Part shown: one piece after another, positions 3,001-63,750 of the stretch
Layout of the letters: each line of letters starts with the position of its first letter
Position numbering within the stretch: position 1 is the stretch's first letter
Made by a program: the position numbers and the translations under genes
DNA from: Polytrichum commune
Taxonomy: Eukaryota > Streptophyta > Polytrichopsida > Polytrichales > Polytrichaceae
DNA: 64,000 nt
Direction of reading: 5' to 3'
Assembly: GCA_950295325.1 (NCBI GenBank)
Contig: OX485806.1
Span: forward strand, 46,991,169 to 47,055,168
The notes under the pieces: model-generated
Database searches by the model: none
The model's input: only the letters and a program-made list of their open reading frames with translations
What the model was told of the DNA's origin: nothing

Positions 3001-4570
3001 AAACTACTCTACAACGGAGAGGGAGTGCCTAGCCATGGTGTTTTCCGTTAAAAAGTTTAGGCATTACCTCATGTGCAACCCGGTTGTATTTTTTGTTGAC
3101 CACATGGCTATCAAGTATCTAATTAACAAGGCGGAGTTAAGTGGTAGGTTAGCTAGGTGGGTTTTGTTATTAGAAGAATTCGACTACACGGTGGAATATA
3201 AACCGGGTCGTATGCATTTACAAGCGGACCACTTGTCTAGGTTGTCGGAGGAGATAGGAAAAAATCCGGTAAATGATATGTTAGTAGATGATAGCCTCTT
3301 TGTGGTCACTTCTACACCGGAGTGGTATGTGGGCATAGTGGAATTTCTAACAACCCACAAGTTGCCCAAAGAGTGGACAAAAGAAGAGAGAAGGAAGGTG
3401 AGGGTAAATAGTAGGCAATTTGTTGTAGTGGGCCATAGGTTGTTTAGAAGGGGGTCCGATGGTATTTTACGACGATGCGTGTCAAAAACGGAGGTTGAAG
3501 CGATCTTAATCGCTTGCCACGATAGCGCTTGCGGCGGTCACTTCTCGGGTCAACTCACCGGGCAAAAAATACTTAGAGCGGGCTACTTTTGGCCTACACT
3601 ATTTAAGGACGCCCATGACTATGTAAGGAAATGCGACGCTTGCCAACGGTATGCCCGAAACGACCTTAGAATGGAGATGCCTTTACATGTATCATTACCC
3701 TTAATTCCTTTCGAAAAATGGGGCATCGACTATGTGGGTGAGGTCCATCCCCAATCTTCAAAAGGAATGAAATATATTGTGGTGGCAACCGAGTACCTCA
3801 CCAAGTGGGCGGAAGCCAAAGCGGTGAAGACCGACACGGCGGAACACGCGGCAACATTTATGTACGAAAACATAATTTCGCGGTTCGGGGTGCCGAAGAT
3901 CCTAGTAAGCGATAGGGGTACTCACTTTTTGAATGACTTGATTCGAGAGATGACAGAGAAATTTAAAATTGATCACCGGAAGACTACTCCCTACCACCCA
4001 CAAACCAATGGACAAACGGAAAGGGTTAACGGAATTTTGGTGAGTATACTACGCAAGACGGTTATAGACTCGAAGCGGGATTGGGATACGAAACTAACGG
4101 CGGCACTTTGGGCATACCGTACAACCTATAAGGTAACTACGCGTGCTACACCATTTTCCTTAGTCTATGGTCTTGAAGCGACACTACCAATCGAATATGA
4201 AGTCGAGTCACTTAGGGTGGCCGTGAGTACGAGACTTACCGAAAGTCAATCCTTACGAAATCGACTAACCGATTTGGAAGCACTTGACGAAGGGAGGAGA
4301 ATGGCGGCTCAACATATTGAGGCAATCCAAAGAAGGAGAAAGATTACTTTCGACAAACGACATAAGAGAAGGGCCCTAACACCGGGAATGATGGTCATGA
4401 TTCAAGACGCACGAAAGCTTGAATTTCCGGCGAAATTCAATGCGGTATGGTTAGGACCTTACCTTGTCTATGAGGTCTTTCCTAATAATTCAATTCAATT
4501 GGAAACGTTGAATGGTGAGCTCTTTCCTACCCGTACATCGGGAAGTAGATGTAAGGAGTACCGAGCTTGA
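2..4570 (+). CDS. Ty3/gypsy (Athila/Tat-like) gag-pol polyprotein, 5' end outside window
   Basis: Retrotransposon polyprotein needed for proteolysis, reverse transcription and integration. The frame is open from base 2 and runs without a stop to 4570, so the start lies outside the window; the first ATG inside is at 92. Domains in order are a gag/linker region, an aspartic protease (LVDGGSS, active DGG at 884-892), reverse transcriptase (VSPMVLVKKKNGKLRVCVDY; catalytic FVDD with the two Asp codons at 2456-2461), RNase H (HVYCDAS, TERECLA) and integrase. The integrase has an HHCC zinc site (CHDSACGGHF then CDACQ) and catalytic D, D and E codons at 3728, 3911 and 4019, with 35 residues between the last two. 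There is no chromodomain after the integrase. The stretch FWPTLFKDA with CDACQ and WGIDYVGE is characteristic of the Athila/Tat group. No damage is visible and the LTR begins 61 bp after the stop. Family assignment is from motif recognition only. Confidence 0.95.
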   Translation, partial: PQGVPANELRPPNLYYDHSNARQTFHPPAGLQTTTGYIPIQNRQGVPPNGSNGRQAPPTDPGPSNSQDVRFMDGVLEATCDDMLPLPTRIGEEQSQWPPHTNAITYELVKGKGVVEEAPALAVTTRARRGDAPLEVGIGEQGNYSSDEEINLSELDRVARRATKDVERENIILQDRERTNAVHDLDNSDVGEWEGPGVPVDEFDVVGNSKVERSTGYDLWADLSTLKADITFGQLLEISPTARKTLKEGMPVHKRMRKVKAKIAARIQSQGGRDVKAIEIEVVIVDKVVPNVLVDGGSSLNILPEDTMKKLGLGLTGPSPLVINMANQSSTTPLGMIKDCRMTTGGEEYLVTFHVIKMHSNKDTFPILLGRPWLRMANAMVNWGRPKPSITYGPEGNRVIVSIGSLEGWMKKEMYLPLEKEIDDLNENEIGKALVGVVHPEGQRVVIDSGSGSLGPNFYNYGDNGDYAQWLREYPESEVDVMVTFHQVGLGSEFPSVSLGEGSLLEPCEVLTEEEWISGGLTPWVDDVEEGEVSLIHVDGTQEEDVIIESSKLEEPLHFKTTSTGIVVGQDVKDYPNVPSDWYRNKEEQAHVSEADWRYVDVKLKNGKTRQMKMGSKLGEKEVREYSNLVDEFSDTFAWSYDELKGIPREMVEHRIPLIPGARPIRQKERRMNPQLQLLVKAELERLLKAGFIKPVEITDWVSPMVLVKKKNGKLRVCVDYRKLNSCTQKDHFPLPFITLLLEEVGGHSRYTFMDGYAGYNQISIALQDIHKTAFTTPWGTFVWVVMPFGLCNAPATFQRLVMYIFTDLLFKSMTVFVDDFSTQSNVDDHLHCVREALVRCRKMRLALNPDKTFLGVNKGVLLGYVVSEKGREPDPDKIAAISDLATPTNSKGISKLLGHVGWYRELIPNFSKIAVPITHLLKKDVKFEWTDACQKAFEELRDRLSTYPVLIPPNWGKPFHVYCDASNVAIGSALCQATGEKEKDQPIAYASKQLTPAERNYSTTERECLAMVFSVKKFRHYLMCNPVVFFVDHMAIKYLINKAELSGRLARWVLLLEEFDYTVEYKPGRMHLQADHLSRLSEEIGKNPVNDMLVDDSLFVVTSTPEWYVGIVEFLTTHKLPKEWTKEERRKVRVNSRQFVVVGHRLFRRGSDGILRRCVSKTEVEAILIACHDSACGGHFSGQLTGQKILRAGYFWPTLFKDAHDYVRKCDACQRYARNDLRMEMPLHVSLPLIPFEKWGIDYVGEVHPQSSKGMKYIVVATEYLTKWAEAKAVKTDTAEHAATFMYENIISRFGVPKILVSDRGTHFLNDLIREMTEKFKIDHRKTTPYHPQTNGQTERVNGILVSILRKTVIDSKRDWDTKLTAALWAYRTTYKVTTRATPFSLVYGLEATLPIEYEVESLRVAVSTRLTESQSLRNRLTDLEALDEGRRMAAQHIEAIQRRRKITFDKRHKRRALTPGMMVMIQDARKLEFPAKFNAVWLGPYLVYEVFPNNSIQLETLNGELFPTRTSGSRCKEYRA

Positions 4571-43336: not shown

Positions 43337-46300
43337 ATGGGAATAAGTCGATATCTGCCTGGTTTAGTGCTTATAATTGGATCAGCCTCTAACATCTCAC
43401 ATCATTTTGCATCAGAACTTATCAAGAGTGTGCACTTGTACATGGGTGAGGGCCTCGTCACCGCTGTTCAGCAAGAGTTTCTTCTGTCGCCTGATGTCTA
43501 CACTCAGATCAGTGAGCCCACGCCATCGTACTTCAGCAAATTTGCTCACAATGGTGCCAAGCAGTTCATAAACACACTGAAGCAATTGAATGAGGCGGAC
43601 TTATGGCAATGCGTACTGGAGTATTATGTTCATACGCCCCAGGATACGTCCATAATCCCTTTGTTGAGTGTATCCAAGTATGTGTCATGTCGTGCACTTC
43701 TTCGGGATAATGACATGCTTTAGACAACATGTTTCCATACCTAAGCCGTGGATCTAAGTATCTGAACTGAGCGTTCTATTTGGTTTGTATATGTTCTTAA
43801 AGGAAATGAGTGTCCAAAACAGGGCTCAGGTTTGCAGACCAATCTAACCTGGAATTTGCATTTTATGCAGGAATCCATCTCTTTATTACATTCCATCTCT
43901 GGCTGAGGACCTAGTTGAGGTTGAAAGAGCTGTCCAGAATCTTGTGCAGGGGCAGCAGCAATGCATTCCTCTTCTGGGTCTGGCTGCTTTGAATGAACAG
44001 CAGCATTTTTCTGGCAGCAGCAGCCAGTCCTTCACAAAATGTGCACATTACTCTGGAAATTCTCCAAAGTGGAACTTCACTGGCTTATCAGGTTTGAATG
44101 TTGATTCAGCTGGTATGAGCGACTCTATGGTGGACGGAGTACCCAGTGAGACGAATTCACAGGTGGAAAACCTGCATGACTGGGGTTCAGATTTGGAACT
44201 GGCAAGTCCTCGGATGTTCGAGACATGTGTGTTAGGTTCCTCCTGGAGCACAAGCATCTCCAGTATGCCTTTAACAGGTTAGAACGTTAATTTATGGTAA
44301 ATGAAATCGACTTGTGAATCTTTATTTTCCTAGTTGGTCAGGACTTGGTCAGGGATGTTTAGTGCGGCTTAAGGTGAATTATAAGTTCACAATTTGTTTT
44401 GGTCATCTTAGGGGTTCTTCGTTAGTTCAGATTAATTCTGCTGTCTTGTATACTGCTGCACGTATGACATTCTTCTTGAATGGTAGGGCTGATATCAGCT
44501 TCAAGTCTGACATCGAGCATGGTCACCAACCACAAGTCCGACTACACCTCTTGGAGCCCTTCGTCGCTGGTTCTAGAATCACAGATGGCTGGAGCATATA
44601 CTTTTCATGACTCCTCATTATTGTCCGATGACAACAGTTTTGGTCAGGCTAAGCTGGTTACTGTCAGCGACGCATCACAATCAGGAGATCTCTGTCATTC
44701 CGGGTCTTACCTAGGTCCTGCCTGTGCAAGTGCCATGGTGTCTGACACAGTGAGTTCTCATGCGGTGAGGAGTATGGCTGAAAGGACAATCTCCTATTGC
44801 AGTGACGAAAGTGTTGGTGAACAGGCTGGGCCTGAGAGGTTGCCTTCAGGCTTTTCTTCTGTTGTGTTGCCCTTTGGATCTTTAAATTGCATATCTACAG
44901 AATGCAGGGAAGAGATCCTTCGACAGCAATTTTCTTCATTTGAGCCTACTCAACTAGGGAATGATGTTGGTCTCAGGGTAGAAAACTTTCCCATGAAGAT
45001 ATTGGGCGAAGAGGCTGAGCTTCCCAACCAGCGAGGGGCGACGGAGAGGATGACGGAGATTACATTGCATGAACTGTCTCATTATTTCCATATGCCTATT
45101 ACTCAAGCCTCCAAAGAGCTCAAGGTTGGCCTTACTGTTCTTAAGAAGAGGTGCCGGGAATTTGGAATTCCTAGGTGGCCGCATCGTAAGATGAAGAGCC
45201 TCAACAGTCTTATCCAAAACATCCAGGTAAATTGCTTGCCTTGTTTACATTGGGCTCAACTGAATATCAATCCTAAAGTGTACAAATTACTAGCTTGAAG
45301 ATCTTGATTCAGGAGATTGAATCCTCTCCTTGCACCTCTGGTACGTACATTTCAGAGCTATTGCATCATAGATGAGCCATCAGACCTTAAAGGAGTGTTA
45401 AATTAAGCCAGTTTCTTCCTAACTTCTACTGATTGGTAGAGCCCAGCGGGAATTTGAAAAGGAAGGTTTGGGTATCATCCTACTGACAAGTTATTCTTAC
45501 ACATTATCTTTCTTGACATTGTAAGTCTGGTTGAGTTCATTTGAATTCACTTAGAAAGAGGCACCTACTTTCCTATCTGAATGTTTATTTTCACTGGGCA
45601 TGCTGGTCATGTTGGGCACATTATTTCTGCACATGTTCATTCTCTTGCTGAGCGCTGCACTAACTGAGTAGTGCATTGAGCAGCCTGTAGCTCTCTTCCT
45701 TGAGTTGTAGATGTATTTTATGATTGTTTTTCTAAGTTTGGGGTGTAAAGTTGTGACTGTTGTGTTGTAAAAAGAGATAACTCGGTTGACCACTGTGCTT
45801 CAGTTCTAGACAAGAAGTTTGCTTTGAAAGCTGCTGGAATATAATGGACATAGATCTGAGTCTTCAGTTTAAGCAAAACTGGGCAGATTGACTGCAATGA
45901 AACTTGCGTCAAATACTTCAAGCATGGTACTCAGGGGATGTCTCAGAAGCGTTTGTGATAATGGCCACATTGTCTGCAGAAAGCATGAGCAGGCATGATT
46001 ATTTTATTCTTAGAGAATCCCTTAATGTTGTCTTCAGACAAGTACTTGGATCTGTCAGGAAGTGGGCAGTGTCTTAACACATTGAGAGGTGCTTTTCCTG
46101 GGCTATGCTACAGTTAGACACTCCATTTTAATCAGGTGTGCCTCCTGAGTTTGTAGCAAAGTTTATGGCTCGTGGTTTTTCAAGAAGTGTTGCAGGAGCT
46201 TGGTTTGTTGAGAATTTTTAAGTCAACAGACTTTCCTATGTATTATAGCTGAACCTTTATCGCTTGTCTGAAATTGATGAAGTCAATCAAGAGTTTCAGT

Positions 46301-49798: not shown

Positions 49799-50346
49799 TG
49801 TCGTGTAAATAACGATCGTGTGTCACTGCAGCTCGAGTACCAACCACCACTAACAAACAACACTAAAACATAGTAAAGTCACACATAAACAATACACCTC
49901 GACAGAGAAGGAAGAGAGTAGAACACTTATAAGAGCTCTAAATCTCTCTTCAAATGCATACAACTAGTCAAGCTATCTCTCACTCCACCAAGGGAGAATC
50001 CAAGAGTGTAAGTAGGGGAAGAAGAACTCAAGATTTATTGCAAAATCATGCAATCTATACCTCAATCAAGCTGTCTCCACACACTAACTCACAAGATTTG
50101 ACTTGGCAAGAATGCCAAGCCAAGGAGGAGGCTCCTCACTTAGGAGCCTTCCTCTCCACATCTAGATTCATCCATCCAAATCTAGATGGATGAAACCCAA
50201 CGGATAAGGTGCGGCCGTCGACGCCACATACCGTGACAACTATCGTGTAAATAGCGATCGTGTGTCACTGCAGCTCGAGTACCAACCACCACTAACAAAC
50301 AACACTAAAACATAGTAAAGTCACACATAAACAATACACCTCGACA
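49799..50346 (-). mobile_element. Composite 3' terminal block (LTR) of the methyltransferase-encoding Ty3 element
   Basis: On the minus strand the block begins TGTCGAGGTG directly after a polypurine tract and ends ACACGACA at the Harbinger target, so it has LTR-like TG...CA ends with inverted TGTCG/CGACA termini. Internally it is A'-B-A. Two 106-bp direct repeats, A (49799-49904) and A' (50241-50346), enclose a 334-bp sequence B (49905-50238). B also occurs, without A, at the right end of the complex and at 63055. The polypurine tract beside A' argues that the LTR starts there; the position of B as a terminal repeat argues otherwise. Both readings remain open. Confidence 0.65.
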
Positions 50347-50360
50347 TGCCCCCCCTCAGC
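50347..50360 (-). promoter_or_regulatory. Polypurine tract (plus-strand primer site) of the Ty3 element
   Basis: On the minus strand CTGAGGGGGGCA immediately precedes TGTCGAGG. A G-run directly upstream of a TG terminus is the expected plus-strand priming site for reverse transcription. Confidence 0.75.
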
Positions 50361-50630: not shown

Positions 50631-52307
50631 TCATTGAGTACGATTGGTGGAAGCACCAAGTACCGAAGATCCTCGACAGCGAGGACAACTCCACTGTCCA
50701 GATGGTAGAGAAGTCAAGGGTGGCCGCAAGCATGCCATGTGCCAACCGCGTTGACACTGATCACACAAGAGCATAGTAGCCGCTCCCTTCTTCTCTCCAC
50801 ACATAAAACATGGAAAACCCTCTGGCACGACGGCCAGTTCAGGATGAACTGTACCCTCAATAGGTAGGTGACATGGGGCACAGTTTTTGGAATGCTCGCG
50901 ACATTCCCTGGCATCCTTGCCTTCCAACAACAACAAACCACTCGGCAACACCTCCTTCACCCGAAGGATAGTGCGCCCCGCCCTGACATCCAATGTCGTA
51001 GGCGCCTCACGTTGGAGATAGACATAATCTCCCTGCCGGAATCTTCGCAACTGAGGTCGGTAAGCACCACTGCGAATGCGTGCATAACGCAATGTGTCAC
51101 GGTGCTGAGCAATGGACAAATTCTCCATGGCCATAGGCATGGCCCTCTGGAAGAATTGAGCCCGCTCCTGCAAACACTCTGCCCAAAGGTCTGGGTCATC
51201 CAAGTTCACAACAGGAGCTAGTTTTTCCCGAATAGAACTTGGGAGTATAGGCTCACGTCCATACAACAACTGATACGGGCTGTAGGATGCCAAAGAGGCC
51301 TGCCTACTAAATCGATAGCCCATAGCAATCCAAGGCAACATAAGGTCCCAATCCCGGTGGCTTCCCCGAAGTAATCCATACTTCCTCAAGCCACGCTTGG
51401 TTGTTTGAACAACTCGTTCAGCCAAGCCATCTGCCTCTGGATGATCCCGAGAGGTGGTACGGTGATCTATGAGCGCCTTAGTGCATAATTCCTCAAAAAC
51501 ACCAAGGAACTCCCTCCCTTGGTCCGTCAACACTTCAGCCGGTGCTCCAAAACGTGCTAACACACGATCCAAAAAGGCGGCCGCGGCCAACTCTGCAAAG
51601 TTTTGGGGTAGAGCAACAAGCTCAATCCACTTGCTAAAATGCTCCACCATCACTAAAACGTACTTTGCTCCACGTGGTGTAACCACCAACGGCCCTGCAA
51701 AGTCCAACGACCAACGGTAGCCCAATCCCATGATAGGTAAAGGCTGTAACTGAGGTGATAAGGTGTTAAAGCTAGACCTAACCCGGTCACAAACTTCACA
51801 CCTCCCGATATAGGCAGCTACCTGCTGATACATGCCAGTCCACCAATATTGGCCACGCAATATCGAATGTGTCCTGCGTATGCCAAAATGGCCAAGTTCC
51901 TCGTGCACTTGTCGCACCAAGGAGGCCCTCTGATCCGGCCTAGGAACAATACGCCTTGTCCCATCCGGCCACAATCGAAATAACAAACCGTTCTCCCAAC
52001 GGAACCTTGTTATTCGATGTCCAATCCTATCCCTTTCCATTGCCGAAATAGACAAAGGAAAGGTACCCTGTTGAAGCTTATGCAATACGGGAAAATCCTC
52101 CCATATATCCACAATAGCTTGAGGCCGATCAGACTCATCATCCGAACCCTGTATCGGAATCTCAACAGATGCACCAGAAAATAAAGTAAGGTAGGCAGCC
52201 GCGTGCCAACTTGGAATCGCCTCTCGATCACAATTTCCATGCCATCTGGCCCCGGTCAAGTCCTCATCTGAAGGACTTGGATTGCGTGAGAGTCTATCTA
52301 CATCCAT
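50631..52307 (-). pseudogene. Integrase with C-terminal PHD finger of the methyltransferase-encoding Ty3 element
   Basis: A 558-codon uninterrupted stretch, frame-shifted relative to the upstream RNase H. It starts with the end of the RNase H/connection region and continues as Ty3 integrase. The zinc-binding HHCC site is H135, H140, C170 and C173, and the catalytic residues are D202 (WSLDFAG), D262 (LTDQGREF) and E297 (ADGLAERVV). Where chromoviruses carry a chromodomain, this protein has a PHD finger at about residues 497-547. It is a complete C4HC3 set, C500, C503, C515, C518, H523, C526, C541 and C544, with the core LLCDQCQRGWHMACLRPP and a W two residues before the last Cys pair. The finger resembles plant nuclear PHD modules such as that of ATXR5/6, which bind histone H3 tails. 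All metal ligands and the catalytic triad are intact in this stretch. Integration targeting through chromatin is inferred, not shown. Confidence 0.93.
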
Positions 52308-52707
52308 GTTGGTAATCCCAGCTGTAAGTACGGTGTATCACCTCAAAGTCATACTCCTGGAGCAATAAAACCCACCTGGCAAGCTTGCCAGTAAGCTTAT
52401 CCGACTCCATGAGCCACCGTAACGGCTGATGGTCAGTCACTAAAGTAAAGTGTTGACCATAAAGATACGGCCGAAAATGGGCAATAGCCCATACCGCCAC
52501 CAATGCTTCTCCCTCGTAGGATGAATAATTAGCCTCCGCCGTGTTATTGCTTCGCGAAGCGTAAGCAACAACATACTCCCGACTAAAATCATCCTTCTGA
52601 GTGAAAACTGCTCCCAAACCCAATGAACTCCAATCTGTATGCAACTGGAAAGATTTGGAGACATCTGGACGTCGAAGCACTGGAGCCGTACCCAGTTTCT
52701 GCTTCAA
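52294..52707 (-). pseudogene. RNase H segment of the methyltransferase-encoding Ty3 element
   Basis: Degrades the RNA strand of RNA-DNA hybrids during reverse transcription. Visible features are LHTDWSSLGLGAVFTQ, YEGEALVAVWAI and VTDHQPLRWLM, carrying the expected acidic residues, followed by the connection segment KLARWVLLLQEYDFEVIHRT. It is in the same frame as the reverse transcriptase and separated from it by a premature TAG at 52720-52722. A net frameshift near 52330 then throws it out of frame with the integrase. Confidence 0.9.
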
Positions 52708-52719
52708 TGTCTCAAACGC

Positions 52720-53778
52720 CTATTGTTGCTCACGACCCCAAGTCCACGGTTGGTCCTTGCTCGTGAGAATGGTGAGAGGCTTGGCGATCAAGCTAAAGTT
52801 CTTGACGAATCGCCGATAGTAATTCGCCAAGCCCAAGAAAGCACGAAGTCTCGGCACATCAACTGGTGCCGGAATCTTCTGCAAGGCGTCCACCTTAGCT
52901 TGTTGTACCCCAAGACCTCTTGGAACAATCATATGCCCCAGATATGCCAGCCGGTCATGGAAAAACTTGCACTTGCCGTGGTGAAAGCGCAATCCCCACC
53001 GCTGCAACCGCTGCAACCGCTCAAAAACGGCTTGAAGATGCCTTACATGCTCCTGTGGTGTTATACTGAAAATGATAACGTCATCAATGTAACACCGAGC
53101 AAAGGGTAAGCAAGAGAGAACTTGGTCCATCACTCTCTGAAACTCCGCAGGTGCATTTTTCAGGCCAAACGGAAGAAACTTCCAATGGTATAGTTGATCC
53201 TTTCCATCTTGATCAACTCCCCAGAATGCGGTTTTCACTCGGTCTCCCACAAGTAATGGGAGTTGGTGATAGCCGGATCTCAAGTCCAACGTGCTAAAGA
53301 CTCGAGCAAATCCGAGGGCATCAAACAACTCCTCCGGGATTGGCATGGGATATCGATCCGACTTGGTCTTCCGATTAACTGGACAGTAATCCCCACACAT
53401 CCGCTTCTCCGTCCAATTGCCAAAGATATCCTTCTTCGTTGGCATAACCGTAGCACAAGCATACTCCCCGTTGGAAAGTTCGATTAGCCCTGCTGCCAAG
53501 AGCTCTCGGCAACGAGCTTGAACGCCAATCCGCTCGGAAACACTGAGCCTGTAAGGTCTCCGAAAAATGGGATGGTCGTCCTCCAACTGAATGTGGATGG
53601 GTTTTCCTTTATAACCTTCAAGATCCTGAAGGCTAAAAGCAAAACATCTACGGTACGAACAAATAAATGCTCGTACCTTCCGTGCCTCAGCACCCGTGAG
53701 ACGAGGGCCTAATTCAAGTGGCCAATCATCAAACTCTCTAGTCTCCCTCTCCACCAAAGAACCACTTGATGTTGGCAT
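52720..53778 (-). pseudogene. Reverse transcriptase segment of the methyltransferase-encoding Ty3 element
   Basis: A 352-codon reverse transcriptase of Ty3/gypsy type. Landmarks are FRRPYRLSVSE (73-83), MCGDYCPVNRKT (127-138), catalytic D165 in FSTLDLRSGYHQ, FLPFGLKNAPAEFQRVM (201-217), and the catalytic YIDD at 230-233, followed by LGHMIVPRGL and FLGLANYYRRFV. The catalytic triad is intact. The stretch is out of frame with the upstream protease-methyltransferase ORF because of an indel near 53780, and it ends at a premature TAG inside the RT-RNase H connection. Confidence 0.93.
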
Positions 53779-53783
53779 AGACT

Positions 53784-54062
53784 CTAATTGCTAATGAGAG
53801 GAGGGGGCATTAACCATGCCCCAGTCTTGGTGCTAGTACTAGAGTCTGACATTTCTTCATCACCACCAATATGTGATGATGAAGCCACCACCGGAGGCGA
53901 AGAAACCGAAGCAGTGTAAAAATGTTGAGCTCGAAGCTCCTCCATCACATGCTGCTCGAATTGAAAAATTCGTTCGGCTTCTCCAACCATGGCGTGAATT
54001 CCCTCTTCCATGGGTGTGGACCGCTGTACCCCCTGACCATAGTCCTCTGCCCCCAGAAACAA
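53784..54062 (-). pseudogene. Linker between methyltransferase and reverse transcriptase
   Basis: About 92 codons in the same frame as the methyltransferase ORF, separated from it by a TAG at 54066-54068. It contains FQFEQHVMEELRAQHFYTA and a Ser/Thr/acidic low-complexity part (GGDEEMSDSSTSTK). No domain recognised. It probably joined the methyltransferase and reverse transcriptase in the ancestral polyprotein. Confidence 0.7.
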
Positions 54063-54065
54063 CCA

Positions 54066-55727
54066 CTAGTCACCAGGATGCCTTTGCAATGAAAGGCATA
54101 AAGCAACAGTCCACACCATAGTATGAAGATCCATAGCTTGGCCCAACACGAAGCGTCGTTGGCCCTCAAAAAGGCCGGGAGCTGCGGTGGTGCCAGTGCG
54201 GAATCCCATGGCACACTCCCGTTCGTCAGCCAATGGTTCGGTGTGGGTTTTGGTGTGAACATCCCACACCATACCCGGCCCCTTATCGCGGAAAACGAAT
54301 GACTGTGGAAACGTCATAAATGTGGGAAAGGCCTGCCGTGGTGCCCCCATTTTGTTGACCAATGCCAACGGGGGTAAATCATCTCGAACAACCGACAAAG
54401 AGGTCCGGTTTGGATCCAAGATGTCATCCACCTTCTGATCCAAAGGTGGAGACAGTGCAGAAAATGCTGTAGCTAAAGTAGATGACGGTGCGAGGTTGGT
54501 CCAAATCCACCGAGGCCGGTGGGCATAAGAACCAATGCTCGCAGCATCCACAAAAATGGGATCTCCAAGGTGTTGACGAACATAATGACCGCCTTCCAAC
54601 ACCTTGTCCCGAGAGTCTCCCAACAAAGGTACATTCTCGAAGATATACCTTGGAGGGGAAGGTTGGTGGGTAAACCACCACTGCATAAGCCAGATGAGGT
54701 CCCAGAAAAGGCTGGACCTGGGATCCTCTAAACCTCGGCCTGCTCCAGCACGTGAGTGGCCTTGGCATGGCCAACCCGCAATCACCATATCCACCGGGCC
54801 CAAATGTCGTAAGTCGGCCTCACTGATGTGTGTAACATCACGAGGGAGACGTGAAAAACACCCATGAATGGCAGTTGGGTGTAACTCCTGGGGGTACAAT
54901 ACCATTAACTGGTGAAGATGGTGACGAGCCACACGGGTGGACACTGGAGAGTTGTCCACATAGACATACCGTCTGACCGTGAGGCCAGCCTCCAAGATGG
55001 CTGCTAAGCCCGTGCCGATGCCCCCAAACAGTTCCACCAAAATAATCCCCGCGTCTGGCGGCTGCCATAAAATGGGATGTGCCAATGCCGAGAGGACACC
55101 CGGTATGACCGGTGTCCTAGAAGTGAGAGAGTGAACAATATCCTCGCACCTCCGAAATAGCTCGGCGGAATCACGCCAAGGAGGAATGGGATCCTTGGGA
55201 TGGCGCACCAATGCACCCTTAGGTGCCATATCCTGTTGATCGTCTATACTCCCCATGAATGCCAATGATTCCTCCAACAATGCGGAACCATAAGGCAATG
55301 TGTCCACCATAGCACTACATCCAAAAACCATAGATAATGGTGCTATGGTCGCGGCCGCCGCGAAAGCCACGGGAATAAGTTCCCTGCGGCCATCCCTAGC
55401 CGACCAACCTGGTCGGATCCATGCTTCCTCAGTCCAGTTGTCCAAACCAAAACCAAGAGGGTAAAGTGATTGCTGACCAACTAAAATGTCATAGTTGGTC
55501 GCATCTGTCACCGCACACCTAAGAAGAAGAGGTGCGGGTGAATCTCCAGGCTTCACTCGATAGCTAAGCTGTAATGGCTCTCGAGTATAACCCATGGCCC
55601 GCTCCACGTGACCAATGGATGTGACAATGGTAAATGGACAAGGAACCAAGTCGTCGGCCATCAATCGCAATTCCTGCGCAAGCTTTTTGCCGATCATAAC
55701 AGGTTGTGCTCCTGAATCCATCATCAC
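54066..55727 (-). pseudogene. Aspartic protease fused to DNMT3/DRM-like C5-cytosine DNA methyltransferase
   Basis: A 553-codon stretch of the Ty3 polyprotein. Residues 1-100 are a retropepsin-like protease with active DSG at 4-6 and DILVGQQ at 80-86. Residues about 225-545 are a C5-cytosine methyltransferase. Motif I is VELFGGIGTG (231-240, SAM binding), motif IV is GWPCQGHS with catalytic C321, motif VI is FENV (363-366), motif VIII is AHRPRWIWTN (402-411), and motifs IX-X run from ERECAMGF to LGQAMDL (502-533). The AHRxRxxWxN form of motif VIII and the order and spacing resemble DNMT3, with DRM as its plant relative, rather than DNMT1/MET1 or CMT. There is no ADD, PWWP, BAH or chromodomain. 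All key catalytic residues are present. The methyltransferase replaces the usual short protease-RT spacer. The ORF begins just after a premature TGA at 55743-55745 and ends at a premature TAG. Confidence 0.95.
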
Positions 55728-55742
55728 ACACTGGGGAGCAAC

Positions 55743-56468
55743 TCAAATAGGGTTGCCCCCAGTCCGACTGACCATCAAAATGCCAGAATCATTCACCATC
55801 CGTACAACGCCAGGTCGAATGCCTCGACGCTCGCGAGCAGGTCGAGCAGCTACATCTGAAAGACAAGCGGCGCCTGCAGAGGCTGGTGAAGCAAAAGATG
55901 AGGTTGGCTCTTGGCCATCCAAGGTGTGTGCGTCAAAAGACGCAATGGCCTCAACCGCAAGCCTTGCTCGCCATTTGGCCGCTTCTTCCAAATTTTCCGT
56001 GGTAGGAAGGTCCACGGTGGCTTGAGCCACAGTCAAAGAAGGCGGGAATGCCTTGCCCTCCAAAATCCTACCTGCTAGGTGGAAAGCCTTAGCGGGTTGG
56101 ACATAAAGATGATGACCACTCCATGGCCGTGAACAAAGGTGTGTGCAACACCTTGGATGCCAACGTGTGCGCCACATTGGTCGCTGAATGTGAAACCTCA
56201 TTGTGCGGATGACGACCACTGACAGATTGGACGGCATCGGCCAATCCAAAAGATAATGGTAGTCGTGCCTGACCAATTTGGTCGGCGGGCGCATTGTCCC
56301 GAGCTCGCGAACTTGCCACATATTCATTTGTGGTCAAAGGTATGGATTGTGACACGGCTTGAGCACGTGTCACGGCCGCGGAACTCACCACCTCGCCCGA
56401 GGCTCCGAACATATAGTAATCCGAAGTGGAAGAACTAGCCTGAGCTCAGGTCGGAAAAAGGACGTTTC
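55743..56468 (-). pseudogene. Gag-protease spacer with two compensating frameshifts
   Basis: Joins nucleocapsid to protease. Reading in the gag frame is lost by a one-base shift near 56480. It runs in another frame through 56412-56110 (AVTRAQAVSQSIPLTTNEY and following residues), then returns to the gag frame by a second shift near 56110. There it continues as AKAFHLAGRILEGKAFPP and EEAAKWRARLAVEAIASF up to the TGA at 55743. No domain is recognised. The return to frame shows that gag, protease and methyltransferase were originally one ORF. Confidence 0.7.
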
Positions 56469-57782
56469 TCAGGATGGAGAGCAAAGCAGTTCTCTACCCG
56501 CGTGATTGTTCCGCCCACAATGGGAACACTTCAACTGCTTGGGTAACTGATTACCCGTCGTCCCCTTCGCCGAGCCCTTAGCGGGAACAAATGGTTTCCG
56601 CTTCGGAGTAGTGACTGTCTGGGCTTGCCTTTGCTTCGAAGGACAGTCTTTCTTAGCGTGGCCGGCCTGCCCACAAGACCAACAATACATGGTCTTGTCT
56701 ACCTCGGCCTCCGCCAATCCCGCAGCCGCAACCGGAACTCTTCGGGATTTGCTAGAATCTACTAGCAGGGAGACCAAATCAGTGGCGTCGTGCTGACACA
56801 ATGCACGATCACACTGCTCCACAATGGCAAATGCCTCTGCGAGTGTCGCCCGACCACCATAATCCATGATGATCCTGGGTAGCGCCAAGTCAAGGAGGCG
56901 TTTGTCAATCTTGGACAAAAACACCTTCACCAATTGACTTTCCGCAAACACACCTCCAGATTCTCTAGCAAACCTCGCCAACCTCGTATACATGGTACGA
57001 GGTGTATCGTCCTTCTCCCGTCTAAAATCTTGTATCCGCTGCATCTGGTCCCGACGGAAACCTCCGTACTCCTCATGTAGATGTAGCTCAAATACCCGCA
57101 ACGGCTCAAAAACTGGCGGAGCCCCTAAAGAGGCTAAAGCCGCTTGGGTAGCCTGGGCATAACGGGAGAGTGGAAGAATGGGGCTCGACGTACTCGCCAC
57201 AGCGGGAGCAGATACCTTATCCTTGGGTTCACCAGGAGAAACTCCCTCCACGTCCACCACAAATACTCCCTCCGGTACCTCCGATTTAACCTCAGGGACG
57301 GCCATGAAACTAGAAGTTGCGCCTTCCTTCAATGCGGATACCAACTCAACCCGAGTCTCCCAGTACCGCTCCACCTGGCGCAACTCCATTCAATGAGCCT
57401 CCGTCCACTACTCATAAGTTTGGAGAGCTTCATGCTCTAAATGCTGAGGCAGAAGCTCGAACACATACCAATCGTTAAAATTGGTATTGCGTTGGCGTTT
57501 CTCTCGCATCCACGTACGAAACCGGATTTTCCAGTCTTGCTGAGAAATGGTCCCTGCTCGACCGGAAAACCGGTCCCGTATCCCTCCCCTAGTCTCCTCC
57601 TCCATATCGCCAAAGGTTCCCACCCACAGGACGTGAGACCGAGTGATAGTCCCCCACGCCGAAGTAGGCTGAAAAACCTCGTTGGGTGCGACCACTGGTT
57701 CAACGTCTGAGAGGTCCGAGGAATGACCTTCCGATGCTCCTGGAGACGGAGAACGATAGTGTTGAGTACGAGTTGTAACCAT
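56469..57782 (-). pseudogene. Gag (capsid and nucleocapsid) of the methyltransferase-encoding Ty3 element
   Basis: Starts at the ATG at 57782 (MVTTRTQHYRSPSPGASEG). It has a retrotransposon gag domain spanning both halves, with landmarks such as FRTWMREKRQRNTNFNDWY and, further on, FRREKDDTPRTMYTRLARFA. The nucleocapsid carries one complete CCHC knuckle (CWSCGQAGHAKKDC near 56650-56692). A second begins CSHCGRNNHAG and is broken by a one-base shift near 56480. Two premature stops, TAG at 57408-57410 and TGA at 57390-57392, are in the same frame six codons apart. Confidence 0.88.
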
Positions 57783-58774
57783 AAACCCACAATGGGATGG
57801 TCACCGAATCAACAACCCAAATGAATTAGTATCCACGTACAAAGAGAAAAAGGGTCAGAGGCAACCTGCACCTGCAACCACCACCAAAACTTATGGTCTG
57901 CTGGTCATTAACCCAGCCTCACCACAAGTGAAAACAAGCACCGCCCACTTGGTGCACAAACAAAGGTCCCGTCGGTCATTAATCCGACCTCACCTCCACA
58001 GTACCTTATCACAATCTAGGACTACACAAAATGGGGCAGTGCTAGAACACTCCAGCACTACAGCCCGCCACAGGGGAAAGTACCAAAACAAAATACAAGG
58101 AACAATGCAAGAACAACACTGGATCCTCTTCCCCAAAACAACATTCAAACAAAAATTGAAAACGACCGCAACCAACTGGCACCCGCTTGCAGTTGGTGGT
58201 CAAAATGAAGAGCCCCTGTTGCTTAAGAAAATGAAATGCTACCTATGCACATCTCTCATCTTCCCACTACAACCTAAGAATCCCTCCTCACAAGAATGCC
58301 GAGAATATGTGTTGACAAACACAATTCGACCTTAATAATAATTTATTTTAGGCCGAACGAAAATTCCACATGCCACCCAATTCCCAATGACACTCCCCTC
58401 GGAAATTTCGTACAACACAACCCCTAAAAATGATCCCAAGTATTTTTAATATTTCACAAGAGCTTCGGTTTTCTTCCTTGTATCCTTGATTAATGAGCCC
58501 AAGAAATTAACCTCTTAGAGAGAAAAGAAAAATTAGAAGTTGAAAGGAAATTATAATAAATAATAAAAATGAAAATGAATGAAATTAATTATTTAATTAT
58601 TTAATTAAATGAATTAAATTAAGTCCGGTTTTTAATTCATTAACGCATTGATTAATTAAAAAAACAAAAACAAAAACAAAATAACAATACACAACCGGTT
58701 GGACTTACAAACACTAGGGTCTCAACCAGTTGGGCTTGCAAACACTAAGGTCTCAACCGATTATACCTACAATC
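57783..58774 (-). other. 5' leader of the methyltransferase-encoding Ty3 element and adjoining sequence
   Basis: No long ORF. On the minus strand it lies between the right-hand repeat and the gag start. A 31-bp tandem repeat (about 2.5 units, key phrase AAACACTAGGGTCT) lies at 58692-58767, and AT-rich DNA at 58530-58680. At 58765-58783 the minus strand reads GTAGGGGGAGATTGTAGG, which looks like a polypurine tract followed by a TG terminus. A remnant of another LTR element may therefore be embedded here. No primer-binding site was identified with confidence. Confidence 0.45.
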
Positions 58775-59193: not shown

Positions 59194-59458
59194 GTGTTAA
59201 ATCTCAAGAATGAAGAAGAAAACATAAAAAAATAAAGCATTCTTGCCAAGTGAGAAGGAAGAGAGTAGAACACTCATAAGAGCTCTAAATCTCTCTTCAA
59301 ATGCACACAACTAGTCAAGCTATCTCCCACTCCACCAAGGGAGAATCCAAGAGTGTAAGTAAGGGAAGAAGAACTCAAGATTTATTGCAAAATCATACAA
59401 TCTATACCTCAAACAAGTTCTCTCCACACACTAACTCACAAGACTTGACTTGGCAAGA

Positions 59459-61729
59459 TGTTGAGTACCAACATTATGAGAGAGAAATAAGTCACAACAG
59501 AGCACCTAAGGGCATCAAACATCACCAAAAGGAAGAACATCATCACCAAAAGGAAGAACATCATCACCGAAATGAAGAAATGAAGAGAGGAACACGAAGA
59601 GAGCTCTCCGAAGCTCGGCCACGGAATTAGGCCCTCCTTCCACGGAGATACAAGACCGACGCGCGGTTATGGGGTCCCTTACCCACGGGTATAGGGCCAT
59701 CAGCGTTTTAGTGAAGGAGAACTTAGGAATTGAGTGGGAGGATATTATACTAGTATAGAGGAGTTAATATTGAGCATTAGGAGGCATAAAGAAATATAAG
59801 ATTTTGGGTTTAAAAGACTATTTTGAAAAGGCATTATGAAGCCTTTAGGAGATAGATAGAATATAGGATTTTGAGGATGAATGATTATCCGAATAGACAT
59901 GATTATGGAATATATAGAATGAAGAATTTGAGGAAGCATGATTATGAATTATGTAAGAATTTTAGATTCTTATGATACAAAAACATTATGAAGATGCATT
60001 ATGAGCAAGGATAGATTCTACTAGTATGTTTAATACAAATCATTGGAATCAAGCAAATGTGAAGACTTGATGGCATTCTCAAAAGGAATTACAATGTAGC
60101 CACGACAAAGATATAGTAGAATCTTAGAGATTTGAACATTCAAATGGTAAAACGGTTATAACCGTTTAGGTTAGATATCATCTACATATGATGGAGGAAT
60201 TTAGTTATCTAGGAAAGCGGAGATAACAACCACTCTTAGTATAGATTTTGGATAGGAAGAAAAGACTATATAAGGGAAGCATTTTAGGAGACCTACACCT
60301 CATTTTCTACACAACGAAGTTATCATAAATTTGAGTGTCAAGAATCACTTGAAGCTTTTGTAACTCTCCTCCCGGAGCACTTTTGCAATACATTATCTTT
60401 TCTACAAATGCGTGTGACCTTTCTACCTCTCTCTCAAATTGTCTTACAAAGTTTGTCAAGCGGTACTTGGAACTTGAGTGATTAAGCAACCGAGAGTAGA
60501 GTAGCTTGAGTAGACTCTTTTAAGAAAGAAGTCAATAGATAGTGCGAGGGTGAGAACAAAGCGCTCAAGACAAATTGGAGAATCAATGGAACTTTGAGAG
60601 AGATTGAATTAAGAAAACGATTGTCAAACTTGAGTGAAGGAAACAAGATTATCTCTCAAAGTGGAACTTATCATTGATCTCCTAAAAAAGGAATTATAAA
60701 TAAATATATGTGATTGAATTCTTGAAGAATTATAATGCATGAATGATTAAAGTAAAACCTCTTAACGAATACAAAGTCCTTTAAAAGAGGAAGAACTTAT
60801 TATTATAACTACATAATCGACTTATAAGTATTGCACATATTATACTACATATTGATTGTTGAACTTATGATTGACAAGAATGATGAAGACATTAATTCAC
60901 ATCAAAGTTTGAATACATATGAATGAAGTAATATTGATATAAGATAATCTACTTACTACAATTGTTATTGAACCTCTTTCTTTTAAGATAATTTGTGAGT
61001 TGTTGGATGTCATTATAAGTTGAAAGAGTTGTCTCTCTTGAACAAACACTCAAGAGAGTAATGTAAGAATGATGTTCAAATCTTCTCGTCATCAAGAAAC
61101 ACTTTGTAGTAAAAGTGCTTCTTCTTTTAAGATACTTTGTGAGTTGTTGGATGTCATTAACAATCGAAGAGTTCTTTCTCTTGAATAAACCTCACGAGAG
61201 TTATAATTATTCTTTTTATAAAAACACTTTGAAGTTAAACGTGACATTGCAAAACAATCAATGATGTGTTCATGAAATTATAACTACTATATGTATACAT
61301 GTCAAGTTACAATATTACAAGTAGTAACACTTGAGCTTAAAAAGGAAGACTCAAGAATATTAGATCTTCTTCATCATTATAAGATTACTTTCAATTGCGT
61401 GATTGATGTTTATGAACTACGAACCTTAAGGATTCATATTGAAAACTATATTATTATCGAGGATATTGTTACACCTCTTAAAGCTTTCTTTAAATCTAAT
61501 GGTTCTTATTATCAATGATGCCTTACATTGAGAGTAAGAATTAAGATAATGAGATTGTGTTCACTCCAATAATTATATTCATATCATAAGGAGAAGAGAA
61601 GGATTATTAATCCAAGACCAAACATATTAATGAGGCACGGTAGTTCTTAAGCGAATATAAATTTACGTGATGTTTCACCGTGAGTCTTCTTGAGCTAATT
61701 TGCAAGGGAACGACCCACGGGGTGCATCA
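59459..61729 (+). mobile_element. Solo LTR of a third family (LTR-III), nested in repeat B
   Basis: Runs TGTTGAGTACC to GGTGCATCA, 2271 bp, with a perfect 5-bp target duplication CAAGA (59454-59458 and 61730-61734). Excision of element and one TSD restores the continuity of repeat B, as seen in the uninterrupted copy at 49905-50238. A TATA box at 60267-60273 suggests plus orientation. Inside are a 21-bp tandem repeat (CATCACCAAAAGGAAGAA, 59519-59577) and a degenerate tandem duplication of about 145 bp (60974-61110 and 61118-61245). No coding domain. Confidence 0.9.
60267..60273 (+). promoter_or_regulatory. TATA box of LTR-III
   Basis: TATATAA followed by GGGAAGC and a pyrimidine-rich CACCTCATTTTC stretch, positioned in the middle of the LTR as expected for a U3/R boundary. 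Confidence 0.45.
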
Positions 61730-61862
61730 CAAGAATGCCAAGCCAAGGAGGAGGCTCCTCACTTAGGAGCCTTCCTCTCCACATCTAGATTCATCCATCC
61801 AAATCTAGATGGATGAAACCCAACGGATAAGGTGCGGCCGTCGACGCCGCATACCGTGACAA

Positions 61863-62730: not shown

Positions 62731-63054
62731 TCATGCTCGAAGCCAAATCATATATAATTTTCTGTTCAAAATGAATTATAACATTAGAATACTATGCAAT
62801 ATGATATGTTGGAGAATGTTAAAATGCTTTAAAATAAAATTCAAATCTTAAAAAATGGCCTTGAAATATTTAGGGTAGTACATGCTTGGATAGTGTAGAA
62901 TGAATATAAAAACAATATATGGATCTTTTAGCATCAAGAAAAGAGAAAGGCTAAAATTTATTTGGTTGGTGAAGTGTAGAGATAAGGCTTTAAATCCATA
63001 AGGTCCATAGTTTGATGCTCGGTAACATTGTTTTGATTGAACCTCCATTTGATT
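62731..63054. other. AT-rich spacer, probable lost right end of the Harbinger transposon
   Basis: No ORF with a domain and no terminal inverted repeat matching 48152 was seen. The right terminus was probably lost or replaced by the repeat B insertion at 63055. Confidence 0.4.
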
Positions 63055-63750
63055 TGTCACAGTATGCGGCGTTGGCGGCCGCACTTTATCCGTTGGGCTT
63101 CATCCATTTAGATTTGGATAAATGAATGTTAGATGTGGAGAGGAAGGCTCGTAAGTGAGGAGCCTCCTTTTTGGCTTGGCATTCTTGCCAAGTCAAGTCT
63201 TATGAATAAGTGTGTGGAGAGAGTTGGTGTGAGGTGAAGATTGCATATTTTTGCAATAAATCTTGAGTTCATCTCCTATTTCTTACACTTTTAGATTCTC
63301 TCGTGATGGAGTGAAAGATAGCTTGACTCATTGTCTGCATTTGAAGAGAAATTAAAGCTCTTTTAAGGGTTTGACTTTCTTCCTTCTCACTTGGCAAGAA
63401 TGCTTCATTTTTCTTTTTTTCTTCTTCATTATTGAGATATTATGTGCAAGGAAGGGCGTGAGGACAAAGAGTGACGAAGTTGTAAAATGTTGGAGCGAAG
63501 AACACCGCGGATTTGTGGGGCAACAAGAAAAAAATTGGTTGCTTGTGAATGCCACATCAAGGTGAATTGTGGTGATGGATTATTGAATTATCTATGGAAT
63601 TTCTTGTCATATATTCACTTACAAGCTTGAATTCACATCATTGAGCTTGTGAAGAGCATTTTGGATTTCGATTCAAGTTTAATTTCATTCAAAAAAAATT
63701 AAAAATTAAAATAAAATAGGAGAGGCGGAGGAGCTCCTCTGGGATCTCCT
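63055..63750 (+). mobile_element. Third copy of repeat B, opposite orientation
   Basis: Begins TGTCACAGTATGCGGCG and follows the right-hand copy through GCAATAAATCTTGAG, CTTGGCAAGAATGC and the 40-codon frame, diverging after about 650 bp near a purine-rich GAGGCGGAGG block. It is inverted relative to the two copies in the retroelement complex. The TGTCAC terminus again forms an abrupt boundary with unrelated DNA, supporting it as a true element end. Confidence 0.75.
63446..63565 (+). other. Forty-codon conserved reading frame in repeat B, second copy
   Basis: Reads ARKGVRTKSDEV through LLVNATSR and a stop, colinear with 59074-59193. Here the frame is open further upstream, to an ATG at 63371. 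Confidence 0.4.

What the first reader, a model, noticed from the sequence alone, without database searches (positions are those of the whole stretch)
54066..55727. Ty3/gypsy retrotransposon carrying a DNMT3/DRM-like cytosine methyltransferase between protease and reverse transcriptase
Seen: protease DSG, then complete methyltransferase motifs I, IV (PCQ), VI (ENV), VIII and X in one open stretch, flanked in order by gag and by RT-RNase H-integrase on the same strand. Known: retrotransposons that captured C5 methyltransferases have been reported in dinoflagellates and in the charophyte Klebsormidium, where self-methylation of the new DNA copy was proposed. Inferred: the motif VIII form (AHRxRxxWxN) points to DNMT3/DRM rather than DNMT1 or CMT. 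An element encoding its own methylation writer in the host of this window may be an undescribed lineage or an independent capture.
Basis: partly seen in the sequence, partly recalled or inferred. Interest (0 to 1): 0.93.

Follow-up and report, generated by a model that had tools for sequence, protein, structure and literature searches.

The report
Plant retrotransposon carrying a DNA methyltransferase
A jumping gene present in many copies in a plant genome carries its own enzyme for marking DNA with methyl groups, the kind of mark that plants use to silence jumping genes, and natural selection has kept that enzyme.

Summary
Minus-strand 55742-54066 is protease plus a C5 cytosine methyltransferase (MT), motifs I-X unpermuted. 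It belongs to a Ty3-type retrotransposon, not a host gene or assembly join: the host assembly (unnamed, 407.8 Mb) gives 79 matching stretches to the fused protein. Of the 30 best, 28 have gag upstream and RT downstream; a second subfamily with about 64% identical MT keeps the layout. The MT is under purifying selection (dN/dS 0.29, 95% 0.20-0.41); its modelled fold matches DNMT3A/B first. New anatomy: ORF1 is gag-protease-MT; a UAG in TMV-type leaky context (CAR-YYA) precedes ORF2, RT-RNaseH-integrase-PHD finger. Ends are split direct repeats (B...A-B-A) with TG...CA termini and 4-bp target duplications (7 of 8 copies exact), plus a self-priming duplex covarying between subfamilies. This copy is broken. 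The kind is known: KnitGypsy-Dnmt3 of Klebsormidium (PMC5890265), with DIRS-like repeats. This is a variant in another streptophyte, probably a land plant; common origin with it was not testable, and the MT is not a recent copy of the host enzymes found. Self-methylation remains inference.

The parts
59252..61861 (-). 5' terminal repeat B (61861-61730 and 59458-59252), element starts TGTCACGG; interrupted by a 2,271-nt nested insertion 59459-61729 (TG...CA, 5-bp duplication CAAGA)
   Evidence: 18 of 18 other copies whose fetch reaches it have a full B at the 5' end and none has A there
59237..59251 (-). Putative self-primed primer-binding site, complementary to nt 125-139 of B
   Evidence: pairing kept with compensatory changes in subfamily 2
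56469..57800 (-). gag with CCHC zinc knuckle (in two frames in this copy)
   Evidence: (PF00098 E 6e-4, 20.2 bits against cut-off 20.8)
55743..56445 (-). Linker between gag and protease, broken by frameshifts and a private stop
55413..55742 (-). Aspartic protease (DSGAQ)
   Evidence: (below cut-off)
54069..55052 (-). C5 cytosine methyltransferase domain, DNMT3-type fold, motifs I-X unpermuted
53785..53793 (-). Leaky-stop context TAG CAA TTA between ORF1 and ORF2
   Evidence: TAG-CAR-YYA also in subfamily 2
52720..53790 (-). Reverse transcriptase (YIDD)
   Evidence: PF00078 3e-25
52294..52719 (-). RNase H
   Evidence: PF17917 5e-36
50631..52337 (-). DDE integrase (H2C2, rve)
   Evidence: best PDB chain Ty3 Gag-Pol 5.9e-21
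50676..50810 (-). PHD finger at the integrase C terminus
   Evidence: PF00628 1.1e-10; zinc pattern found in 5 of the 8 fetched 3' ends and in both subfamily-2 ends fetched
50347..50357 (-). Polypurine tract directly before A
50243..50346 (-). Repeat A, internal copy
49905..50238 (-). Repeat B, 3' copy
49799..49904 (-). Repeat A, terminal copy; element ends CACGACA

Best explanation
A Ty3-type retrotransposon family of a streptophyte plant that carries a DNMT3-type de novo cytosine methyltransferase as the last domain of its Gag-protease polyprotein. Shown: MT fused in frame to gag and protease in many copies; MT under purifying selection; a conserved UAG in a leaky context before RT-RNaseH-integrase-PHD; split direct repeats, TG...CA ends and 4-bp target duplications; a covarying self-priming duplex. 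Inferred: most ribosomes stop at the UAG, so the MT is made at Gag level and packed into the particle, and RT-integrase is made by readthrough. Reverse transcription starts from the RNA's own 5' region. The cDNA ends up as a circle-like form that the integrase opens at the A|B junction (palindrome GACAGCTGTC), losing 2 nt. In the particle or nucleus the MT methylates the new DNA before or at integration, and the PHD finger steers the integration complex to chromatin with a given histone H3 tail state. The likely benefit is that the copy enters the methylated host genome looking like resident DNA.
For: Copies: 79 matching stretches, two of them pieces of one copy, 41 of 79 without an internal stop. 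Layout: gag or linker upstream and RT downstream in 28 of 30 loci. Second subfamily: 3 of 3 fetched integrase-bearing places missing from the MT list do carry MT, two of them subfamily 2. Selection: MT dN/dS 0.29 (0.20-0.41), RT 0.135, linker after MT 0.695, 8 copies; between subfamilies MT identity 0.63-0.65 against spacer 0.35-0.38, dN/dS 0.11-0.14 with dS near saturation. Fold: pTM 0.79, all 50 listed PDB matches DNMT3A/B entries. Leaky stop: TAG-CAR-TTA at +92 codons in 28 of 30 loci, and out of frame in the window copy; TAG-CAA-TCA in both subfamily-2 loci fetched; CAR YYA essential for TMV readthrough (passages of PMC2754532). Ends. Self-priming: 15-nt and 14-nt complementarity against 0 of 5,150 control windows reaching 13.
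Against: No enzymatic activity, expression, particle or methylome data. The published Klebsormidium enzyme gave no methylation in yeast, judged inconclusive by its authors (PMC5890265 section 10), who also note that retrotransposons without an MT move in the same genomes (section 11). PCQ in place of PCN departs from DNMT3. In the window copy the A|B junction palindrome and one of four target-duplication bases are changed, and 1 of 6 readable subfamily-1 3' ends lacks the B-A part. Complementarity of the putative primer is perfect over 15 nt in only 10 of 18 full-B copies (1 mismatch in 4, 2 in 3, 3 in 1). Readthrough, circular intermediate and PHD ligand are inferred from sequence alone. Selection was measured on 8 copies with a simple method.
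Confidence: 0.7

Rival explanations
1. The MT works on host chromatin rather than on the element's own cDNA: guided by the integrase PHD finger, it methylates the insertion site or silences competitors or defence genes.
For: PHD finger at the integrase C terminus in both subfamilies; most of the listed PDB matches of that protein are PHD fingers of chromatin proteins.
Against: MT sits in ORF1 with Gag, the PHD in ORF2, separated by a stop, so most MT should be made without the PHD.
Confidence: 0.2
2. The MT was taken from a phage or bacterium, not from a host DNMT3 gene. (Raised from 0.35 to 0.4.)
For: PCQ and DPRSxLF are shared with phage enzymes, not with DNMT3B; tblastn reaches E 9e-14 against phages; BLASTP gives 78 bits with a phage enzyme and 67 with a DNMT3B fragment over the same part. 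Two host DRM genes and a host DNMT3-like exon match DNMT3B (E 3e-14, 1e-12, 2e-12) but not the element MT (E 0.6, 0.5, 0.07).
Against: The closest fold is DNMT3; the one phage enzyme tested itself matches DNMT3B best in the PDB; a clade of element + DNMT3B + DRM is not rejected (AU p 0.32); fast evolution in an element would also blur a host origin.
Confidence: 0.4
3. A host methyltransferase gene next to or interrupted by a Ty3 element, or an assembly join.
For: Only that this single copy has stops and frameshifts around the MT.
Against: 79 stretches with the same protease-MT fusion on 7 chromosome-size contigs; gag or linker upstream and RT downstream in 28 of 30 loci, the two exceptions (L086, L108) lacking one side within 1.5 kb.
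Confidence: 0.01
4. A decaying passenger without function.
For: 38 of 79 matching stretches have internal stops, and the window copy's other frames are broken; MT changes faster than RT.
Against: MT dN/dS upper bound 0.41; exact motif strings kept in 24-28 of 30 copies; kept across two subfamilies.
Confidence: 0.04
5. An ordinary LTR element whose 5' LTR happens to lack A, so that 'split direct repeats' is only truncation.
For: PPT before A, conserved site after B: A-B behaves as one 442-nt LTR for reverse transcription.
Against: 18 of 18 copies whose fetch reaches the 5' end start at exactly the same base of B and none has A there; 7 of 8 copies with both ends read have exact 4-bp duplications at B-start and A-end, the window copy 3 of 4 bases.
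Confidence: 0.04

Closest known systems
KnitGypsy-Dnmt3 of the charophyte Klebsormidium nitens (PMC5890265; abstract, sections 9-11 and passages read; figures and supplements not seen)
   Same: Gypsy domains, DNMT3-type unpermuted MT, intronless copies under purifying selection (Ka/Ks <0.2 reported there), repeats described as DIRS-like.
   Different: Another streptophyte host, probably a land plant; MT in a Gag-protease-MT ORF before a leaky UAG, where the paper's text places it in the Pol polyprotein ORF; PHD finger (the term is absent from that paper's main text); target duplications and self-priming shown here. Sequence relationship untested.
SymbioDIRS-Dnmt3 of dinoflagellates (PMC5890265)
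   Same: DNMT3-type MT in a retrotransposon; active on CG in yeast there.
   Different: DIRS class, unrelated to Gypsy according to the paper; this element has a DDE integrase and target duplications.
Tcn1 / Tf1-Sushi chromoviruses (PMC6317226, passages)
   Same: Ty3 superfamily, self-primed; Tcn1 known from non-seed plants (PMC3350952, start of abstract in the listing).
   Different: PHD finger in place of a chromodomain, MT, split direct repeats.
DIRS / PAT elements (repeat layout recalled)
   Same: Split direct repeats.
   Different: No tyrosine recombinase found; DDE integrase; 4-bp target duplication.
RIRE2 of rice, a gypsy element cited as a readthrough candidate (PMC2754532, passage and reference list)
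   Same: gypsy element with suspected stop readthrough.
   Different: Details not seen; no MT known to me.

Membership tests
Ty3/gypsy LTR retrotransposon | Domain order gag-PR-RT-RH-IN on one strand | tested here: met
   gag/linker-PR-MT-RT in 28 of 30 loci
Ty3/gypsy LTR retrotransposon | DDE integrase, Ty3-like | tested here: met
   Ty3 Gag-Pol best, 5.9e-21; DDE residues read by eye in the sequence
Ty3/gypsy LTR retrotransposon | Identical LTRs at both ends | tested here: not met
   Ends are B and A-B-A in the window copy and in 5 of 6 readable subfamily-1 3' ends; one copy ends in A alone
Ty3/gypsy LTR retrotransposon | TG...CA ends with 4-5 bp target duplication | tested here: met
   7 of 8 copies with both ends read; window copy 3 of 4 bases
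DIRS-like retrotransposon | Tyrosine recombinase, no target duplication | tested here: not met
   No YR domain among the 8 window ORFs scanned; target duplications present
DIRS-like retrotransposon | Split direct or inverted repeats | tested here: met
KnitGypsy-Dnmt3 kind | DNMT3-type MT inside a Gypsy polyprotein with DIRS-like repeats | tested here: met
   definition
KnitGypsy-Dnmt3 kind | MT within the Pol polyprotein ORF | tested here: inconclusive
   Here MT is upstream of a conserved UAG, in the gag ORF; the published figure was not visible
KnitGypsy-Dnmt3 kind | Common descent with the K. nitens family | not testable with these tools
DNMT3 | Unpermuted motifs, DNMT3-like fold and motif VIII | tested here: met
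DNMT3 | Motif IV PCN | tested here: not met
   exact PCQGH in 27 of 30 copies and in both subfamily-2 loci
DNMT3 | De novo methylation activity | not tested
   bench work
DRM | Permuted motif order | tested here: not met
   motif I precedes IV, VI, VIII, X; the host's own DRM genes show motif X before I
DNMT1/CMT | Closer to DNMT1/CMT than to DNMT3 | tested here: not met
   none among 45 PDB sequences at E<=1
Chromovirus (Tcn1) | Chromodomain at integrase C terminus | tested here: not met
   PHD instead; no Chromo family at E<=1
TMV-type readthrough | UAG followed by CAR-YYA | tested here: met
   28 of 30 in frame; CAA-TCA in both subfamily-2 loci fetched
TMV-type readthrough | Readthrough product in cells | not tested
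   bench work

The most novel reading that the evidence does not exclude
A Ty3-type retroelement with a full epigenetic kit: a DNA-methylation writer made at Gag level through a plant-virus-type leaky stop, a histone-reading PHD finger on its integrase, and a DDE integrase that works on a circle-like cDNA junction instead of LTR ends. New copies would arrive already methylated and chromatin-targeted, as a standing, selected trait of a plant transposon lineage.
Probability: 0.4. Interest if true: 0.88.

Novelty: new variant of a known kind. Interest (0 to 1): 0.72.

Why it matters
Cytosine methylation is the main mark by which plants silence transposons, so a transposon that encodes and keeps a methyltransferase inverts the usual relation. 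The phenomenon was reported in one charophyte and in dinoflagellates; here it is a multi-copy, recently moving family (A and B repeats within single copies differ by 0.7-2.5% in the six copies measured) in another streptophyte. The leaky stop, the PHD reader, the self-primer and the circle-type ends give precise, separately testable predictions about when and where the enzyme acts. They make the open question of what such enzymes do for the element directly testable.

Tried and rejected
Single-sequence structure prediction of the MT was useless (pLDDT 36); the aligned one worked. A scan of viral contigs with the element's own protein found nothing, and a scan of bacterial and archaeal genomes gave no relative. 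NCBIfam only repeats the generic C5-methylase result for the MT. Origin of the MT: a tree of 57 rows left it on a long branch of its own, and the AU test did not reject a clade with DNMT3B and DRM (p 0.32), so host or phage source is open. Species of the host: seven contigs of 42-78 Mb, an RWP-RK gene and two permuted DRM genes point to a streptophyte; n=7 would suit, for instance, a polytrichaceous moss (chromosome number recalled), but one search gave nothing to confirm it, so 'land plant' is a guess. Papers on PHD in Ty3 integrases: searches returned Ginger DNA transposons and unrelated work. Number of B repeats in the genome: not completed. Assembly-join and host-gene readings were rejected by the copies.

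Full report
What is in the sequence. The named stretch lies in a minus-strand element. Stop to stop it is 55742-54066, 558 codons; simulated sequence of the same kind gave at most 306 (500 simulations). Pfam finds C5 DNA methylase, RT, RNase H, H2C2 and rve integrase, and a PHD finger above cut-off, in that order, with a gag zinc knuckle just under cut-off upstream. The aspartic protease is below Pfam's cut-off (E 0.051) and rests on the DSGAQ motif. The copy is broken: the frames of gag, linker, RT, RNase H and integrase are separated by stops and frameshifts, and a 2,271-nt insertion with a 5-bp duplication sits in its 5' repeat.

It is a real family. The host assembly (407,808,757 bases, 64 contigs; the window is C4:46991169-47055168) gave 79 matching stretches for the protease-MT protein, the window's own included and the last two being pieces of one copy; the others are 76-93% identical and 41 of 79 have no internal stop. 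The tool calls this a lower bound. Of the 30 best loci, 29 have gag or linker sequence upstream, 29 have RT downstream, 28 both; L086 lacks RT and L108 lacks gag within 1.5 kb. The integrase-PHD protein gave 77 places; 12 of these are a second subfamily at 84-85% identity, and 21 of 77 have no internal stop in a frame of 1,045-1,048 codons. Three integrase-bearing places missing from the MT list were fetched, and all three carry the MT. A search with a DNMT3B fragment gave 146 matches in the host; by my reading of the table 142 cover the part that the element MT covers (about residues 49-164), which fits a copy number above 79, though they were not checked one by one.

ORF layout. In 28 of 30 loci an in-frame TAG stands 92 codons after the MT, followed by CAATTA (25) or CAGTTA (3). 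The window copy has the same TAG CAA TTA out of frame (53793-53785), and one locus (L086) is rearranged there. In subfamily 2 both loci fetched have TAG CAA TCA. A plant study states that the six nucleotides CAR YYA after UAG are essential for tobacco mosaic virus readthrough, about 10% in vivo (passages, PMC2754532). So ORF1 is gag-protease-MT and ORF2 RT-RNaseH-integrase-PHD, and the MT should be made with Gag, not with RT. Readthrough itself is inferred.

Selection. Of 26 equal-length loci out of 30, the 8 with at most one stop in the next 499 codons were used (the others were dropped for stops or frameshifts). dN/dS (Nei-Gojobori, codon bootstrap): protease 0.35 (0.15-0.79), spacer 0.48 (0.26-0.86), MT 0.29 (0.20-0.41), linker after MT 0.70 (0.39-1.33), RT 0.135 (0.09-0.19). 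Between subfamilies (4 loci against 2) MT identity is 0.63-0.65, protease 0.70-0.71, spacer 0.35-0.38; MT dN/dS 0.11-0.14, with dS near saturation. Exact motif strings are kept in 24 (I), 27 (IV), 27 (VI), 28 (VIII) and 27 (X) of 30 loci. The MT is constrained, less than RT.

What the enzyme is. By sequence the best PDB matches are DNMT3B and DNMT3A (3e-10), then DRM (3.5e-6) and HhaI (about 1e-3), with no DNMT1 or CMT at E<=1. A model from 52 aligned sequences (window, 6 copies, 45 of the 80 viral loci, picked by hand from the ORF list) has pLDDT 73 and pTM 0.79; the 50 listed PDB matches are all DNMT3A or DNMT3B entries. The alignment behind the model holds viral enzymes of a kind that is itself DNMT3-like (one phage enzyme tested), so the fold result is not independent of them. 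Against a plain DNMT3 filing: motif IV is PCQ and a DPRSxLF stretch follows, as in phage enzymes; DNMT3B and DRM2 have PCN. BLASTP gives 78 bits with a phage enzyme and 67 with the DNMT3B fragment. The tree does not settle it. The unpermuted order excludes DRM.

The host's own enzymes. The DNMT3B search also hit two places that prove to be DRM genes, 51-53% identical to DRM2, with motif X before motif I and PCN, and one exon with ENV and RRRVYWTN that looks like DNMT3. The element MT does not match them (E 0.63, 0.46, 0.069), while DNMT3B does (3e-14, 1e-12, 2e-12). So the MT is not a recent copy of these host genes. DRM is reported to be restricted to streptophytes (passage of PMC12344493), which places the host; that it is a land plant is likely but not shown.

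Ends. Of 20 copies fetched on the 5' side, 18 have a full B repeat; in the other two (L130, L131) the fetched piece ends before or within B. None of the 18 has A there. All 18 begin at the same base, TGTCACGG. Of 8 copies fetched on the 3' side, two gave no match (L135, L137), five show PPT|A-CAGC-B-A ending CACGACA, and one (L136) shows PPT|A ending CACGACA. In all six readable copies the 4 bases before TGTCACGG equal those after CACGACA: CGGT, ATGC, GTGT, GGCT, TATC, CCTT. A subfamily-2 copy gives CAAA. The window copy gives GCAT against ACAT. So a DDE integrase made these ends, and they are not LTR ends. The internal A-B junction equals the two ends joined with two extra bases, GC, in the palindrome GACAGCTGTC, kept in both subfamily-2 ends but altered in the window copy. 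B...A-B-A is what a two-repeat circle gives when opened at one A|B junction, and B...A what a one-repeat circle gives. A circular or end-joined intermediate is therefore inferred. de Mendoza and colleagues state in a figure legend that the K. nitens element has the repeat structure of a DIRS element with Gypsy domains (section 9).

Priming. Directly after B, 13 bases are kept exactly in 18 of 19 copies while the leader beyond diverges. Their complement starts at nt 124-128 of B, with the 15-mer exact in 17 of 18 full B repeats; pairing over 15 nt is perfect in 10 of 18, with 1-3 mismatches in 8. The complementarity is 15 nt in the window copy and 14 nt in the subfamily-2 copy with changed bases on both sides; 0 of 5,150 control windows reach 13 against either B. 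This fits self-priming as in Tf1/Sushi and the plant Tcn1 clade (passages of PMC6317226). No start site was mapped.

PHD. The zinc pattern is found in the 3' ends of L138-L142, 5 of the 8 fetched (not in L136, and L135 and L137 gave no match), and in both subfamily-2 ends. Its nearest solved relatives include CHD4, PHF12, KDM5, ATXR5 and UHRF1, several of which read the unmodified H3 tail (recalled). The main text of the plant survey PMC6317226 does not contain the terms PHD or methyltransferase, nor that of PMC5890265 PHD. Searches found no Ty3 integrase with a PHD finger; PHD was reported in a Ginger1 transposase.

How it most likely works. The MT, packed with Gag, methylates the element's new DNA, so that it enters a methylated genome already marked. 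The window is strongly CpG-depleted (observed/expected 0.41 at 5000-49800 against 0.74 inside the element), which fits a methylated genome and a young element. Nothing here shows methylation. The published Klebsormidium enzyme failed in yeast, which its authors call inconclusive, while two dinoflagellate copies worked (section 10). The authors also weigh protection from recognition, RNA methylation and self-restraint (section 11).

Novelty. Retrotransposon capture of DNMT3 is known, also in a streptophyte Gypsy element with DIRS-like repeats; [quoted passage not shown] its supplement was not seen). The listings showed no report of a second streptophyte family. New here, within those searches: another streptophyte host in high copy, MT in a Gag-level ORF ahead of a TMV-type leaky stop, the PHD reader, integrase-type target duplications on split repeats, and the covarying self-primer. 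Some may also hold for the K. nitens element, whose figure and sequence I could not see. Hence a new variant of a known kind.

Noticed in passing
window 2-4570 (+): A long open frame of another Ty3-type element (protease, RT, RNase H, integrase; 1,522 codons, runs off the window start), about 27-38% identical to this element's pol.
   Followed up: partly
window 44480-45298 (+): RWP-RK domain ORF (PF02042, 7e-25), a sign that the host is a green plant.
   Followed up: partly
L151, L152, L153: Host methyltransferase genes: two permuted DRM genes and one DNMT3-like exon.
   Followed up: partly
window 63054-63667: 5' end (B repeat 85%, leader 78% identical) of another related element on the opposite strand, running towards the window end.
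   Followed up: no
window 59459-61729: 2,271-nt TG...CA insertion with a 5-bp duplication CAAGA inside the 5' B repeat, probably a solo LTR of another family.
   Followed up: partly
L116 / L136: Copy with B at the 5' end and only A at the 3' end, yet with a 4-bp target duplication: what a linearised one-repeat circle would give.
   Followed up: partly
L144 300-1000: Subfamily-2 copy whose 5' part holds an inverted gag fragment next to B, a rearranged but duplication-flanked copy.
   Followed up: no
L001: A phage C5 methyltransferase (Psychrobacillus phage Perkons) matches DNMT3B at 2e-29, better than HhaI or HaeIII: suggestive for the origin of DNMT3.
   Followed up: no
window 53630-53800 (-): RNA around and downstream of the leaky UAG folds better than shuffles (z -2.4, 5 of 200 as good); a stimulatory structure is possible.
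   Followed up: no
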